Shown one piece after another: positions 10,192 to 32,287 of a stretch of 36,114 nucleotides of DNA (position 1 is the stretch's first letter; the number at the start of each line of letters is the position of its first letter). The position numbers and the translations under genes are program-made. The stretch is from contig WFZK01000006.1 in assembly GCA_015489595.1 (NCBI GenBank), forward strand, positions 1 to 36,114, in the 5' to 3' direction. The notes under the pieces were generated by a model. The model saw only the letters and a list, made by a program, of their open reading frames with translations. It was not told the origin of the DNA and made no database searches. This DNA is from Candidatus Dojkabacteria bacterium. GTDB taxonomy: Bacteria; Patescibacteriota; Dojkabacteria; GCA-002793355.

Positions 10192-11337
10192 ATGGAATTT
10201 AAGAGGTTTTACAGATTAGAGAAATTAATCACTCGCGGCCGTGTAGTCTTTTTATACGGTCCTAGGCGGGTTGGGAAAACGTATCTTTTGACGAGCTTTA
10301 TACAAGATTATAAGGATAGGGATAAGATATTCTTGGGATTAGGAGAGGATTTAGACTTACAATCAGTGCTAGCGCAACGAAGCGTGGAGATTTATCAAAA
10401 ATATTTTTCTGAGTACGATCTTATTGCGATAGATGAAGCACAGGTGATTCCTAATATCGGCGAATCTCTCAAGCTGTTGGTGGATCTGTTTCCAAACAAA
10501 TACTTTATTGCTACAGGTTCGTCCGCCTTATTCCTAAATCAACAGGTTGGGGAGCCTTTAACGGGCAGAAAATGGGAATACATACTGTATCCGCTGTCAA
10601 TCCTAGAACTTTCTTATACGTTCTCGCATTACGAGGTTAAACGTAAACTAGACGAGTTCTTATTGTTTGGACTTTATCCGGAAGTGTTAAAAGCTGGTAG
10701 TGCACAGCAAAAGAAGAAGATCCTGTATGAACTAGTGAATTCGTATTTACTAAAAGATATTTTAATGTTTGAAAGGCTAAAATCTTCAGCCACTTTAGTA
10801 AAGCTTCTAAAGTTATTAGCTTATCAGATAGGTTCTGAGGTTTCATTAAGTGAACTTGCAAATAATCTAGGCATTGATGTGAAAACAGTGGGTCGTTACA
10901 TAGATCTTTTGGTAAAAAGTTTTATTATCTATCCGCTGGGAGGGTTTAGTAAAAATTTACGTAAAGAAGTTACCAAAAAGAAAAAATATTACTTTATAGA
11001 TCTGGGGATACGAAATACTTTACTTGATGATTTTGGACTTTTAGATACGAGGCCAGATAAAGGCGCTTTGTGGGAGAATTTCCTAACAATGGAAAGAGTG
11101 AAATTACATACTTATCGGGAGACATTCGCTCGTTTATATTTTTGGCGTACATGGCAAAAGCAGGAGATTGATTTAATTGAACAAATAGATGGGGAACTAT
11201 ATGCTTACGAGTTTAAGTTTTCGCCTAAAGCAGCGGCTAAAGCGCGTTTACCTGCTGCATTTAGGAGGGCGTATCCAGAGGCGAAATTTAAAGTCGTCCA
11301 TAAAGATAACTTTTGGGATTTTGTTCTTAAGCTGTAA
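10192..11337 (+). CDS. AAA ATPase with DUF4143-like C-terminus (paralog 1)
   Basis: Walker A LYGPRRVGKTYLL; Walker B LIAIDEAQ; HTH-like SEVSLSELANNLGIDVKTVGRYIDLL; C-terminal EIDLIEQIDGELYAYEFKF (D...ExK, PD-(D/E)XK-like). Confidence 0.88.
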   Translation: MEFKRFYRLEKLITRGRVVFLYGPRRVGKTYLLTSFIQDYKDRDKIFLGLGEDLDLQSVLAQRSVEIYQKYFSEYDLIAIDEAQVIPNIGESLKLLVDLFPNKYFIATGSSALFLNQQVGEPLTGRKWEYILYPLSILELSYTFSHYEVKRKLDEFLLFGLYPEVLKAGSAQQKKKILYELVNSYLLKDILMFERLKSSATLVKLLKLLAYQIGSEVSLSELANNLGIDVKTVGRYIDLLVKSFIIYPLGGFSKNLRKEVTKKKKYYFIDLGIRNTLLDDFGLLDTRPDKGALWENFLTMERVKLHTYRETFARLYFWRTWQKQEIDLIEQIDGELYAYEFKFSPKAAAKARLPAAFRRAYPEAKFKVVHKDNFWDFVLKL

Positions 11338-21766: not shown

Positions 21767-24700
21767 ATGGGGGTGAGGGGAAAAGGGAGTTTTCAGAAGG
21801 TCGACACTATGCCATCAGGAGTTTTCGGCCAGCTGGAGAGAGGTGGTGATGCTGATCAACGATCTGGGTTCAGGGTTTCTTTTAGGCGCGAAGATCTCAA
21901 GAGAATAGATAGGGAGCTCCCTATGACAGCAAATTATGGAGAAGGAGTACGGAACTTAGATCAAACTGTTCAGGATCTTTTACAGAATCATATAGATGCT
22001 GCAGCACATAAGTTCATAATTGAGAAACTGGGGCCGTCTCTCCTAGAGATGAATTCCTCCGAAATTCAGGAGGCCCTTGAGGATGAGGAAAGGAAAGACA
22101 AGCTTAAAGAGTTTCTGTGGATGTCGTATTTATATTGGTGGGTGCATCCTGCGATGTCACCTGAAGACCAGCAAGAATCGTTGGAGTTTTTAGCAGAACT
22201 GGCAGAGGGTTTGCCGGTTCGGGAAGAACTCCGAGATGGGAAATCTGACAAAGTGGATCCAAACGCCCTTGATGAAATTATTAAGGGCCTTGTGTTTGAT
22301 AAGCCGGAGATTGACTATAAACTTTACGATTGGGAGGGAAATAGGTACTTAAGAGTGAAAATAGAAGATTTGGATAGCATACGATATCCTCCTGATAGAT
22401 ATGTGATTGTGGAGGTAAGGATTCACGATGCAGGTAAGGGATACGATCCAAGCTTGCTTGCTGTATTCTTTTCCAAAAAGGGAGATTTGCCTTGGAGTAT
22501 AGGTCAATTTGGCGAGGGTGCTAAGATGGCTGCCAGAGAGATCCAGAGGGCTGGAGGAGATGTGGTTTTCAGGTCTGTACCTTCTAAAAAAGGAGAAGGC
22601 GTTCGCGAAATCTGGCAGGTTAGACTTAGGACTTATGGGAAAAGTCATGATGAGGAGCTGGTCTCAGATCCAAGATTCGCTCCGGTTAGGGCGAGAGGTG
22701 TGAGTACAGCGGTCGACGATAAGGTGCCGAGTGGCTCATGCACCATTGTTAGATTGCCACTTAAATTAGAAGGAAGATCAGGGCGGGATGAAAGACCACT
22801 AGAAGGGCTTAGGGCACGTTTTGACCCTAGGATGGGGTTTGATTCGGTCGTAGGTTTTTTTAGAGATCTGCAGTTAAGGAAGGAGGGGTTGAAGGGGTGG
22901 TATTTTCCGTTTAGTTTAAAGAAGATGAAGGATCAAGGTCTTACCCCTGTTTTGATTTGTCCAGATTGTGGTGGAGAGTTGCGAGTTTGGGGCATGCGGT
23001 TTGATACGACCTACTTTAAGCCGGATATGGCGTACAACTTTCTATCATTGCCAGAGGGGATGCTTGGACGGGATCGCGACAAGGTTTCAGGGTACGAGCT
23101 TTTAGAGCTTGTTGAAAAGATTGTTACAAACTCTGGTGAGGGATTCTTAAAGAGACTCCTTACTTTGGCATTACGCGGAGAAGGGCGTAGGGCACTCTCA
23201 GAATCAGGGCTTGAAATGGGAGTACTCAATTCAGTAATCTCTCACTGTATAGGGAGGCCTTTGGAGGAATCAGGATGTGTTCGTTTTATGGAAACGGCGC
23301 GAGAGATCCTTGGTCTTACCCCTCAAGAATATTTTCTACTCATATCCAGTAGAGAGGCTAAAGAGAATAAGCCTCTCCTTGAGTATATTAAGCAATTAGG
23401 AGGGAATTTTAGGGTACTTCCAGCCCCATCCCACTTGGTTGATTCCCTTACTGCATATTTTCTAATAAGGGGATATAAAGTTACAGCTTCTCTGTCTGAG
23501 ATGCTACGAACTCTTTTGGTCGAGGGAAGAAACAGTCAAGAGCGACTAAGACTAGGAGAGGTGTTGAAGGTGAGAGCCGCCAACATCTTAAGAGAAATAG
23601 GGGTAGAAATTCCAGAGAGCTTATTAAGGGAGATAACAGTAGTGCCTTTTGCACATGTAGAAGGAGTAGATCCGCTAATACGGCCCTATGCGGGGCCTTT
23701 GTTTGTGGATGTTGAATATTGGGGAGATACAGCCCCTGTGGTTGTGGCTTCGGTTTTGTTGGGATTGTTGGAAGATAAAGATGTTGATATAGATCTTGCA
23801 CTCTTAAGGGCCCAACGGGCTCTACTTAGCCGTATAGACGATGCTGCAAAAGAAATGGTGCCTGATGCCGGCGTGTCAGAAGAAGTACAGAGAGAGGTCA
23901 ATGGATTAATAATGGAGTACTTTACCCTACTTTATGAGCGTATAAAAGGTAGAGAAATTTCAACCGTTGATTTTAGACACGAGGATTTCCAAGCAATTCT
24001 CCGTAGTCGTATTCCACGAGAACTGTGGGACAAGTTACGGGGATGCGGTTATTCAGCCAGCAGAGAGTGTGGAATTCTTTCAGAGATCGTGCCGAGGGCT
24101 TTTGTGTGGGAAGACGGCACTTTACATATGCTCAGTTGGCGCGATGGGGAGCCGACTTCGGTAGAGCTTGGAGAGCATAATCGGTTAGGGAGTTGGAAAG
24201 GACATCCTGTATATGGATTTACAGTTGGGGAAGATGCGTACATTTTTATAAAATGGGAGTTTAAAAAAGATACCGTAATAACAGATGGGGTGAAAAAGAT
24301 AGTTTTTGATGGAGACTACGTTGTGGAGTTCAGAAAATTTGGAGGTATTCAACCATATTCAGTTTTGAATATGGGGTTCACAGGTTTGTGGGCTGTGGCT
24401 GGGGATGGTATTTTAGTTAGAAGCTATCCTCATGTTTTAGGAGAAGAGGAGTGGTGGAAAGCAGAAATTGCTGGGGTTCTGAAGGAAGTCGAGATCTATG
24501 AAGGAGGACGCGTAGATCCTTTTAGGAATAGTGCGTACCCTTCTAGAATAGAAACAGGAATCCCAATTGAGTACGGAATTAAACACTGGCCTCCTTGGCG
24601 GCTATGGGCAGAGTTAGTTCAGAACGCAATAGCTGAAGGTGGTGTTGCTTCAATGAGACTATATTTCAAGATTAAAAGAGAAGGTGAAGAGGTTTGGGTT

Positions 24701-26206
24701 AGCGGAGACGAGCTTAGGGAGGGTGAGAAAATAGAGGGAGTTAGGATCGAAAATCCAGGTTCTTACCATCCTTTAATGTTAAAGTGGCTAGGTGCTGGCT
24801 CTAAATCTCCGAATCCTCTAATCCCTGGTCGGTTTGGTGAAGGGGCCAAGTTGGCTCTCTCGTATTGTCTGTTCCATGGTCTTTTAGTACGGTTAGGATC
24901 TGAGCACGGCAATCAGAGATGGGTTGCTACCGCCTCCACCCGTGAAGAGGAATTCGGCGAAAAACTTGCAAAACTATTGACTCTCGATGTTGAATATAAT
25001 GATGTACCAGAAGGGGATGTGCCCGTTTCGTTCGTGGAGATTCTACCTGGGGAAGACATCCCCTTTGAGGAGTGGGAAAATTTTGTTGAACCAGTGGATC
25101 CAAGGAGAGAGGAGGAAGGGTTATACGGGATTGAACGTTTCGTTTTATTAGAAAGAGACTATGATGAGGCTTTTAGGCTACCTGGGGGTGTGTGGGTTTT
25201 GCGTCGTCCACAAAGGAGGGGGCAGATTTTCGTGAATGGTATTTTAGTGCCTAGGGCTGGGAAAGAGAGTTATTTATTTGGATATAGTTTGCCCTCAGAT
25301 GTTATAGATAGAGATCGTGAAAGAGTAGATGTGGGGAAGATTCGAGATTATCTAGGTTATGTTTTAGCCTGGGCTCCTGTAGAGCTCGTAGAGAGTTTCG
25401 TGCGTAAGATTAAGGGCGCGATTCGAGGGAATAAGTTGGAAGTGGAAGGTCTGCCTGGCGATTTTAGCTATGGGGCGAATGTGACCTTGTTGGAGGTGGG
25501 GGGCAAAAAGACATTCCCTTCGCTCTCTTTCTGGCGGGAAGCCCTGATGGATCATCTGAGCGTGAGTGCAGTGTATTCGGAAGATGATTTGTGGCACAAA
25601 TATGCCGAAAGAGTGAAGGAGGGGAAAGGTAGTTTAGAGGAACGTTTAGAGATTCTACGCGCTCTTTCAGATTTAGATCATTTCAAGGGATTCGCGTTGA
25701 ATGTTCCCCCTCGTTTGTATCATTCTTTTTTTAAGCATGTATTGCCTTCTGCTCAGGATTTGCTTAGCGATAAGGGGCGAGTGTTTGTGCCGCAGGAGAA
25801 GGTGCCACTTGAGATCCAGAGTAGGATACAGGCTTTGCTAAATGTGTCCTTAAAGCTTCTTAGCAGTGATAGTATTAGAGCTGCTGTTAGGAGGATAGGA
25901 GGGGACGAGATGTTAATTAGATATGCTGAGAATCTCAGAGCGATGTTGGAGCGGAACGACTTGGTCAGATATTTTGTTTCTTACTTCTCTGGAGATTTGG
26001 GAGAGTGGAAAAGAGAGAAGCAGGAAATATATTTAAATTTATGGATCACGCTTACAAATTCAAGTTCCGTAGTGAAGGTAATAATGCACGAATTGCTACA
26101 CGCTCTTACCGGTTTAAAGGACTACACCCCCGAATTTCTGGCCATTCATATGGAGGTTCTGAGAGTATTACGTGAGATGACACGAAGGAAGAATAAGCAG
26201 GGTTGA
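21767..26206 (+). CDS. Giant protein with two tandem GHKL-like ATPase modules and C-terminal HExxH metallopeptidase-like motif
   Basis: Module 1: QDLLQNHIDAA (21971-22003), VRIHDAGKGYDP (near 22418-22450), GQFGEGAKMA (22502-22531). Module 2: ELVQNAIAE (24611-24637), VRIENPGSYHP (near 24740-24772), GRFGEGAKLA (24827-24856). CPDCGG at about 22958. HELLH at 26087-26101. Confidence 0.85.
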   Translation: MGVRGKGSFQKVDTMPSGVFGQLERGGDADQRSGFRVSFRREDLKRIDRELPMTANYGEGVRNLDQTVQDLLQNHIDAAAHKFIIEKLGPSLLEMNSSEIQEALEDEERKDKLKEFLWMSYLYWWVHPAMSPEDQQESLEFLAELAEGLPVREELRDGKSDKVDPNALDEIIKGLVFDKPEIDYKLYDWEGNRYLRVKIEDLDSIRYPPDRYVIVEVRIHDAGKGYDPSLLAVFFSKKGDLPWSIGQFGEGAKMAAREIQRAGGDVVFRSVPSKKGEGVREIWQVRLRTYGKSHDEELVSDPRFAPVRARGVSTAVDDKVPSGSCTIVRLPLKLEGRSGRDERPLEGLRARFDPRMGFDSVVGFFRDLQLRKEGLKGWYFPFSLKKMKDQGLTPVLICPDCGGELRVWGMRFDTTYFKPDMAYNFLSLPEGMLGRDRDKVSGYELLELVEKIVTNSGEGFLKRLLTLALRGEGRRALSESGLEMGVLNSVISHCIGRPLEESGCVRFMETAREILGLTPQEYFLLISSREAKENKPLLEYIKQLGGNFRVLPAPSHLVDSLTAYFLIRGYKVTASLSEMLRTLLVEGRNSQERLRLGEVLKVRAANILREIGVEIPESLLREITVVPFAHVEGVDPLIRPYAGPLFVDVEYWGDTAPVVVASVLLGLLEDKDVDIDLALLRAQRALLSRIDDAAKEMVPDAGVSEEVQREVNGLIMEYFTLLYERIKGREISTVDFRHEDFQAILRSRIPRELWDKLRGCGYSASRECGILSEIVPRAFVWEDGTLHMLSWRDGEPTSVELGEHNRLGSWKGHPVYGFTVGEDAYIFIKWEFKKDTVITDGVKKIVFDGDYVVEFRKFGGIQPYSVLNMGFTGLWAVAGDGILVRSYPHVLGEEEWWKAEIAGVLKEVEIYEGGRVDPFRNSAYPSRIETGIPIEYGIKHWPPWRLWAELVQNAIAEGGVASMRLYFKIKREGEEVWVSGDELREGEKIEGVRIENPGSYHPLMLKWLGAGSKSPNPLIPGRFGEGAKLALSYCLFHGLLVRLGSEHGNQRWVATASTREEEFGEKLAKLLTLDVEYNDVPEGDVPVSFVEILPGEDIPFEEWENFVEPVDPRREEEGLYGIERFVLLERDYDEAFRLPGGVWVLRRPQRRGQIFVNGILVPRAGKESYLFGYSLPSDVIDRDRERVDVGKIRDYLGYVLAWAPVELVESFVRKIKGAIRGNKLEVEGLPGDFSYGANVTLLEVGGKKTFPSLSFWREALMDHLSVSAVYSEDDLWHKYAERVKEGKGSLEERLEILRALSDLDHFKGFALNVPPRLYHSFFKHVLPSAQDLLSDKGRVFVPQEKVPLEIQSRIQALLNVSLKLLSSDSIRAAVRRIGGDEMLIRYAENLRAMLERNDLVRYFVSYFSGDLGEWKREKQEIYLNLWITLTNSSSVVKVIMHELLHALTGLKDYTPEFLAIHMEVLRVLREMTRRKNKQG

Positions 26207-31123: not shown

Positions 31124-32287
31124 ATGTCAGTCGCAGCAGATTTCGTGCCAAGAATCTACACTAATTTGGGTAACTACTTCGGAGGCAGGAAAGTATTAGT
31201 TTTGTACGGTCCTAGACGAGTTGGGAAGACAACCCTCGTTAGGCATTTTTTAAAGTCCCTAAAAGGGGGTCAAAAGAGAAGATTTTACCCATATAAGTAC
31301 GTGTCTGGCGATGAGCTAGAAGTTCAGGAGGTTTTATCAAGACCGGTGTTAGAGAATCTTATTGAGTTTTGTGAAGGAGCCAAACTCCTGGTTGTGGACG
31401 AGGCTCAACGGATCCCTAATATCGGATGGAGCATTAAACTGCTGGTGGACAGCGAGAAGGACATTCACGTAATTCTGACAGGGTCATCGAGTTTCAATTT
31501 AGCAGGACAGGTAGGTGAGCCTTTAACAGGGCGTAAGTTTACCTTGACTTTGTATCCCCTTTCGGTTTTAGAGCTTCGTAGGCACTTCGGAGCTTACTGG
31601 GTTAAGAGGAATTTGGAGAAACTTCTAGTATTTGGTAGTTATCCTGAGGTGTTATTGGCCTCATCTATCTCTCAGAAACGGAGGATTTTGGAGGACCTCG
31701 TAAATTCTTATCTTCTTAAGGATATCTTAGAACTAGAAAAGGTTAAGTCTTCGAACGTTCTTGTTCAACTTCTTAGACTCTTGGCCTTTCAAGTTGGAAG
31801 TGAAGTCTCGTACAATGAGCTTGCGTCTAGCTTAAAAATTGATGTAAAAACCGTGGCAAGATATTTGGATCTTTTGGAGCAAACCTTTGTTATATTTAGA
31901 CTTTATGGTTATTCTCGGAATTTAAGAAAAGAGATAGTTAAAAAGCAGAAGTATTACTTCTACGATCTCGGTATAAGAAATGCGATTATAGCTAATACAA
32001 ATCCTACAGATATACGAAATGATGTTGGGGCTCTCTGGGAGAATTTTCTTGCCGTAGAACGCATAAAAAAACAGCACTATACTTCCATCTATGCCAACAA
32101 CTATTTCTGGAGAACGTGGGACAGGAGGGAAATAGATTGGATAGAAGAGCGCGAAGGTAAGCTTTTCGCATACGAATTTAAGTATTCTCCAGAGGCTAAG
32201 GTAAGTTTTACGGCTTTTTTAGAGACTTATCCTGAGGCTAAAACAAAAGTAATTACCCCTGATAATTTTCTGGAGTTTGTAGGTTAG
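31124..32287 (+). CDS. AAA ATPase with DUF4143-like C-terminus (paralog 2)
   Basis: VLYGPRRVGKTTLVRHF; LLVVDEAQRIPNIG; GSEVSYNELASSLKIDVKTVARYLDLL; EIDWIEEREGKLFAYEFKYSPEA. Collinear paralog of 10192-11337. Confidence 0.88.
   Translation: MSVAADFVPRIYTNLGNYFGGRKVLVLYGPRRVGKTTLVRHFLKSLKGGQKRRFYPYKYVSGDELEVQEVLSRPVLENLIEFCEGAKLLVVDEAQRIPNIGWSIKLLVDSEKDIHVILTGSSSFNLAGQVGEPLTGRKFTLTLYPLSVLELRRHFGAYWVKRNLEKLLVFGSYPEVLLASSISQKRRILEDLVNSYLLKDILELEKVKSSNVLVQLLRLLAFQVGSEVSYNELASSLKIDVKTVARYLDLLEQTFVIFRLYGYSRNLRKEIVKKQKYYFYDLGIRNAIIANTNPTDIRNDVGALWENFLAVERIKKQHYTSIYANNYFWRTWDRREIDWIEEREGKLFAYEFKYSPEAKVSFTAFLETYPEAKTKVITPDNFLEFVG

What the first reader, a model, noticed from the sequence alone, without database searches (positions are those of the whole stretch)
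21767..26206. 1479-aa protein: tandem GHKL-like ATPase modules plus C-terminal HELLH protease-like motif, no recognised family
Seen directly: two copies of the same motif order. Module 1 has QDLLQNHIDAA, VRIHDAGKGYDP and GQFGEGAKMA. Module 2 has ELVQNAIAE, VRIENPGSYHP and GRFGEGAKLA. These correspond to the N, G1 and G2 boxes of GHKL (gyrase/Hsp90/histidine kinase/MutL) ATPases. The protein ends with VIMHELLHALTGLKDYTPEFLAIHMEVL, a zincin-type HExxH with downstream Glu candidates. Module 2 has lost the G1 Asp (HDAGKG to IENPGS), suggesting one active and one degenerate site. A covalent GHKL dimer in one chain coupled to a metallopeptidase motif would be an unusual ATP-gated protease or conformational-switch design. 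Function (proteostasis, defence or conflict system) is speculative.
Basis: partly seen in the sequence, partly recalled or inferred. Interest (0 to 1): 0.85.

Follow-up and report, generated by a model that had tools for sequence, protein, structure and literature searches.

The report
Tandem GHKL ATPase fused to metalloprotease
A 1,479-residue protein from a tiny-genomed bacterium joins two copies of a clamp-like ATP-binding module to one zinc-protease-like domain; it belongs to a family, unnamed in the libraries and papers checked, that is also found in phages, archaea and gut bacteria, and whose paired forms usually carry one intact protease site per two ATP-binding modules.

Summary
In detail: one intact 1,479-codon ORF (21767-26206 +) with two GHKL modules and a C-terminal HELLH. 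It is not an orphan. Module 2 plus the HELLH domain is homologous end to end to ~450-aa single-unit proteins in tailed phages (45 of 53 viral hits keep HExxH; HExxH plus a downstream Asp is invariant in all 38 aligned). Other relatives occur in DPANN archaea, Melainabacteria and a few other genomes. AlphaFold/Foldseek places module 2 nearest MORC2 and module 1 nearest Hsp90/TRAP1. The last ~100 residues resemble minigluzincins: best profile hit yeast Wss1 (E=1.6e-5), Foldseek selecase. I propose an asymmetric ATP-gated clamp protease. Anatomy is well supported; ATP gating and DNA-bound substrates are inference. The 'one active, one degenerate ATPase' reading is weak: the G1 Asp is Asn in 17 of 38 aligned sequences. 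No Pfam, NCBIfam, PADLOC or paper found here names the family. Found in 1 of 380 genomes of this phylum. New variant of known domain kinds.

The parts
21767..26206 (+). Whole ORF, 1,479 aa: GHKL unit 1 - middle region - GHKL unit 2 - zincin
   Evidence: open frame without stops; profile hits to each module
21914..23146 (+). GHKL unit 1 (residues ~50-460): Bergerat-type domain with a ~130-residue insert between N and G1 boxes, then a transducer-like part with the family's Y-N...RDR motif
   Evidence: 3.8e-17 for 203-270; 0.003-0.005 for N box and RDR motif; Foldseek TRAP1 prob 0.98, Hsc82 0.93 (model pLDDT 59)
21971..22003 (+). Unit 1 N box QDLLQNHIDAA (Asp in place of the catalytic Glu, as in most cellular relatives)
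22415..22450 (+). Unit 1 G1 box VRIHDAGKGYDP (Asp kept)
22502..22531 (+). Unit 1 G2 box GQFGEGAKMA
23534..23857 (+). Candidate dead zincin of unit 1 (residues ~590-697: helix-strands-helix-helix, VVASVLLGLLEDKD in the HExxH place)
   Evidence: Predicted secondary structure only (pLDDT ~45-70); no sequence-profile support. Tentative
24044..24472 (+). Beta-rich middle region (residues ~760-902), no relatives found
   Evidence: pLDDT mostly below 50
24539..25411 (+). GHKL unit 2 (residues ~925-1215), phrog_6077-like
   Evidence: Foldseek MORC2 prob 0.99
24611..24637 (+). Unit 2 N box ELVQNAIAE (Glu and Asn kept; family Arg and Asp lost)
24740..24772 (+). Unit 2 G1 box VRIENPGSYHP (Asn at the Asp position, as in nearly half of the family)
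24827..24856 (+). Unit 2 G2 box GRFGEGAKLA
25904..26203 (+). C-terminal minigluzincin-like metallopeptidase domain
   Evidence: selecase 0.98, abylysin 0.95; Wss1 E=1.6e-5
26087..26101 (+). HELLH zinc-binding/catalytic motif (residues 1441-1445)
   Evidence: HE..H in 38 of 38
26120..26122 (+). Asp1452, candidate third zinc ligand
   Evidence: invariant in 38/38 and 44/44 aligned sequences

Best explanation
The protein is a single-chain, asymmetric pair of GHKL ATPase units carrying one intact Wss1/SprT-like (minigluzincin) metalloprotease domain. SHOWN: the two GHKL modules, the homology of module 2 plus protease to a phage/cellular family, the conserved protease motif, and the recurrence of one intact protease site per two GHKL modules. 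INFERRED: ATP binding closes the two GHKL modules on each other, as GHKL proteins such as Hsp90, MORC, MutL and Topo VI-B do when they dimerise. The closed clamp then encloses a substrate and brings it to, or uncovers, the one protease site; hydrolysis reopens it. More speculative: the substrate is protein bound to DNA, so the enzyme would strip or degrade DNA-bound proteins, as Wss1/SPRTN do for DNA-protein crosslinks, but gated by an ATP-driven clamp. Phages would use the single-unit form as a homodimer on their own replicating genomes.
For: Module 2 + protease homologous end to end to phage proteins. GHKL profile's best solved relatives: Topo VI-B 2e-6, Hsp90 2e-4, MORC2 0.0015; Foldseek MORC2 0.99 for unit 2, TRAP1 0.98 for unit 1. 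Protease profile's best solved relatives: Wss1 1.6e-5, abylysin 0.0026; Foldseek selecase/abylysin 0.98/0.95; SprT-like is the Pfam family most members touch, below cut-off. Two GHKL to one intact protease: here; L067; archaeal L161; five Gastranaerophilales ORFs whose second unit aligns to the whole first (hhalign 7e-127) with HExxH lost; an archaeal gene pair, one HELGH and one TRLGE. DNA link: of phage neighbours with a named family, many are helicases, topoisomerase, primase, DNA polymerase/primase, Ku-like; this gene lies directly upstream of uvrA-uvrC, with uvrB further up; no SprT-like protein was found in this genome.
Against: No biochemical evidence of ATPase or protease activity. Three cellular relatives read EExxH at the protease site (L068, L069, L160), so protease activity is not universal. 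Some phage members lack HExxH altogether. No DNA-binding domain was identified. The dead protease in unit 1 rests on predicted secondary structure only. The uvr neighbourhood is a variable spot in relatives, so adjacency may be accidental. Phage neighbour counts have no background control.
Confidence: 0.45

Rival explanations
1. Conflict-system protein: the GHKL pair senses infection (or, in phages, host defence) and switches on a protease that cleaves host or phage proteins. Bacterial copies would be defence effectors, phage copies counter-defence like T4 rIIA.
For: Patchy distribution (1 of 380 phylum genomes; 12 of 236 archaeal phylum genomes), widespread in phages, structural matches to phage RIIA. 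PMC7824862 groups rIIA-like GHKL proteins with variable C-termini among counter-defence systems.
Against: No PADLOC hit; checked neighbours in Gastranaerophilales and archaea include EngA, methionyl-tRNA synthetase and SAICAR synthetase rather than defence genes; codon usage is host-like.
Confidence: 0.3
2. Hsp90-like chaperone-protease: the GHKL pair works on client proteins in solution and the zincin trims or degrades them, with no DNA involved.
For: Unit 1 model is nearest TRAP1/Hsc82; minigluzincins include the soluble selecase and abylysin.
Against: The GHKL profile is nearer Topo VI-B than Hsp90; unit 2 is nearest MORC2; phage neighbours lean to DNA metabolism.
Confidence: 0.2
3. Non-proteolytic scaffold: the zincin fold is kept as a zinc-stabilised or protein-binding domain and the GHKL pair acts as a conformational switch.
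For: EExxH variants in L068, L069, L160 and members without HExxH.
Against: HExxH plus Asp invariant in 38 of 38 aligned sequences including this one; dead copies are often paired with a live copy.
Confidence: 0.15
4. Chance motifs in an unrelated large protein.
For: Overall identity to relatives is only ~15-25%.
Against: Independent profile hits with E-values down to 1e-21, correct motif order, and structure matches.
Confidence: 0.02

Closest known systems
phrog_6077 phage GHKL family (annotated RIIA lysis inhibitor / HATPase / sacsin-like)
   Same: Homologous GHKL module with the same boxes and Y-N...RDR transducer motif
   Different: The three phrog members read here (P0004-P0006) are 330-405 aa, single-module and without HExxH; this protein has two modules plus protease
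GHKL-HExxH phage proteins, e.g. Moorella phage MTATph1 CDS0173
   Same: End-to-end match of module 2 + zincin, HExxHxxSGxxDxTxEF
   Different: Single unit of ~450 aa
Yeast Wss1 / SPRTN / SprT-like minigluzincins
   Same: Protease profile matches Wss1 (1.6e-5) and abylysin (0.0026); similar HExxH-G-H/D-F spacing
   Different: Family-invariant Asp near the usual third-ligand His; below Pfam cut-offs; fused to GHKL ATPases
MORC / Topo VI-B / Hsp90 GHKL ATPases
   Same: Bergerat-type module by profile and fold
   Different: None is fused to a zincin in what was found here; pairing is intramolecular in this protein
T4-type RIIA
   Same: Structural match of the GHKL part; described as GHKL plus variable C-terminus (PMC7824862)
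   Different: No zincin described there; no sequence-level membership tested

Membership tests
GHKL ATPase superfamily | N, G1 and G2 boxes in order | tested here: met
   unit 1 has Asp for the N-box Glu, unit 2 has Asn for the G1 Asp
GHKL ATPase superfamily | Bergerat fold | tested here: met
   Foldseek MORC2 0.99, TRAP1 0.98; models of moderate confidence, no hit with E below 0.001
GHKL ATPase superfamily | ATP binding and hydrolysis | not testable with these tools
   Needs protein
phrog_6077 | Profile match over most of the domain | tested here: met
   Unit 2, profile 13-242 of 366, E=3e-14
Minigluzincin (Wss1/SprT-like) metallopeptidase | HExxH motif on a helix | tested here: met
Minigluzincin (Wss1/SprT-like) metallopeptidase | Fold: helix, three strands, two helices | tested here: met
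Minigluzincin (Wss1/SprT-like) metallopeptidase | Canonical third zinc ligand (His or Glu) | tested here: inconclusive
   Invariant Asp1452; His or Phe-Glu five or six residues on in most relatives, Phe-Leu here
Minigluzincin (Wss1/SprT-like) metallopeptidase | Pfam SprT-like or WLM cut-off | tested here: not met
   Best member E 8e-4 for SprT-like, 7e-4 for WLM; window member 0.047 and 14.0 bits against a cut-off of 25.6 for SprT-like
SPRTN/Wss1 DNA-protein crosslink protease | DNA-dependent proteolysis | not testable with these tools
   Functional assay needed
Known anti-phage defence systems (PADLOC) | Profile match | tested here: not met
   no family
T4 rIIA | Sequence membership in RIIA | not tested
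   Only structural similarity of the GHKL part

The most novel reading that the evidence does not exclude
A class of ATP-gated, DNA-clamp proteases shared by phages, CPR bacteria, gut Gastranaerophilales and DPANN archaea, in which two GHKL modules, often one unit with a dead protease, gate a single Wss1/SprT-like protease on DNA-bound proteins.
Probability: 0.3. Interest if true: 0.88.

Novelty: new variant of a known kind. Interest (0 to 1): 0.64.

Why it matters
If the mechanism holds, prokaryotes and their phages have a protease switched by a GHKL clamp, a coupling not found in the papers and libraries searched here. The repeated one-live, one-dead protease arrangement makes a testable prediction about stoichiometry. 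It would also give a function to many phage proteins now listed as hypothetical or RIIA-like.

Tried and rejected
Whole-protein searches in viral contigs, genome contigs, phage and plasmid records and 380 phylum genomes found no close relative. Chance motifs: rejected. Recent foreign gene: codon usage is host-like, though no related genome of the family carries it. Sequence support for a dead zincin in unit 1: tested against 200 shuffles, none; the structure hint remains. G1 Asp loss as proof of a dead ATPase: rejected. Synteny: uvrB lies within about 3.6-11 kb of uvrA in four of the relatives, and uvrC fragments follow uvrA in three, with variable genes between uvrB and uvrA. L103 in G256 is a different GHKL protein without HExxH. 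Tree of GHKL modules: cellular and viral groups separate with only 86/95 support and long branches, so the order of duplication is unresolved. Literature searches found no description of the fusion.
Full report
Observation. The reported ORF exists exactly as described: 1,479 codons, ATG start, no stop. The genome is small (825,502 bases, 47 contigs, 93.5% complete). Its class includes G083, whose contig C107 matches, at every stretch sampled, a contig of a Dojkabacteria MAG (L065), so I place the host in or near Candidatus Dojkabacteria; this is inference.

Relatives. Plain searches find nothing, but PHROG phrog_6077, a phage GHKL family, hits residues 938-1211 at 3e-14. Following it led to P0002 (449 aa, on a viral contig) and Moorella phage MTATph1 CDS0173 (446 aa), each one GHKL module followed by HExxHxxSGxxDxTxEF. 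An alignment-based scan gave 53 viral loci, 45 of which keep a C-terminal HExxH. One of the two scan patterns lay beside the motif, so that fraction is biased upwards; many hits carry the DGxxxH form that the pattern cannot match. In the 38-row alignment HE..H and Asp1452 are invariant.

Cellular relatives. L068 (labelled delta-proteobacterium), L069 (Melainabacteria, tandem), L070 (Woesearchaeota) and L067 (Bacillota MAG, tandem) came from genome contigs. In the window's own phylum only this genome had a family member among 380 (the second hit there, L103, is another GHKL protein).

Structure. Residues 903-1479 modelled with 38 sequences gave mean pLDDT 71.9; Foldseek matches MORC2 (prob 0.99) for the GHKL part and the minigluzincins selecase and abylysin (0.98, 0.95) for the C-terminus. 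E-values were above 0.001, but the two halves independently return the expected folds. By sequence profile the protease domain's nearest solved relative is yeast Wss1 (1.6e-5), then abylysin; SPRTN is weak (0.13). The GHKL profile is nearest Topo VI-B, Hsp90 and MORC2. Residues 1-902 gave pLDDT 59 and match TRAP1 and Hsc82. That model shows a helix-strands-helix-helix element at 590-697 where unit 2 has its zincin, without HExxH; the alignment used could bias this, and sequence profiles do not support it.

Two-to-one pattern. L067, L161 and this protein have two GHKL modules and one HExxH; L069 and L160 have the same layout but EExxH. In five Gastranaerophilales-type ORFs the second unit aligns along the whole first unit (hhalign E 7e-127) with HExxH replaced, for instance by ICQMLH. 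In archaeon G760 two genes overlapping by about 20 bases encode full units, one with HELGH and one with TRLGE. So the paired, one-protease state has been reached in at least three layouts. Single-unit phage members could reach a paired state only as dimers.

ATPase boxes. Unit 1 keeps Asn, G1 Asp and G2 but has Asp for the N-box Glu, as most cellular relatives do. Unit 2 keeps Glu, Asn and G2, has Asn for the G1 Asp, and lacks the Arg and Asp of the N box. Asn at G1 is common in the family, so I do not read it as inactivation. In the bacterial tandems L069 and L160 the second module's G1 is also irregular (DES-YEG, DSSEYG), which hints at a division of labour.

Context. The gene starts 26 bases after a FemAB gene and ends 304 bases before uvrA. 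In family relatives uvrB and uvrA lie near one another with variable genes between them and no family member there. Codon usage is like the host's. The genome shows no SprT-like protein at E 0.001. Phage neighbours with a named PHROG include several helicases, a topoisomerase, primase, DNA polymerase/primase, Ku-like and anti-restriction proteins, and portal proteins.

Mechanism and literature. Wss1 and Spartan are described as minigluzincins; [quoted passage not shown] MORC proteins are GHKL ATPases linked to chromatin compaction; C. elegans MORC-1 topologically entraps DNA (PMC8277788, abstract). Jumbo-phage and polyvalent-protein surveys mention rIIA-like GHKL proteins and zincins separately; in the passages read, neither joins them. 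ATP-driven dimerisation of GHKL proteins is established knowledge from memory. The proposal of an ATP-gated clamp protease follows from these parts and is untested.

Noticed in passing
L162 6208-9781: Archaeal pair of overlapping genes, one with HELGH and one with the site changed to TRLGE; looks like a split version of the window's tandem protein.
   Followed up: partly
L157 40-13137; L158 357-10277; L159 2809-9696: ORFs of 2,296-4,366 aa from the Melainabacteria class that end in a live GHKL-zincin plus a dead GHKL-zincin unit; their long N-terminal parts were not studied.
   Followed up: partly
L163 7269-8903; L147 1462-3168: Archaeal family members split by in-frame TAG codons (one and two): recoding, sequencing error or decay not distinguished.
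   Followed up: no
L069, L068, L160: Three cellular members have EExxH in place of HExxH with the rest of the site kept.
   Followed up: no
L011 and L064: The N-box Asn is replaced by Glu (QEAFD, QENLD) in two members that keep G1 Asp and G2.
   Followed up: no
window 10192-11337 and 31124-32287: Two AAA_14/DUF4143 ATPases matching PADLOC candidate PDC-S01; a similar gene lies beside the archaeal tandem in L161.
   Followed up: no
L002 / L006 / L065: A viral contig (IMGVR_UViG_3300027784_000677) shares sequence with a contig binned in a Dojkabacteria MAG: a phage of that group or contamination.
   Followed up: partly
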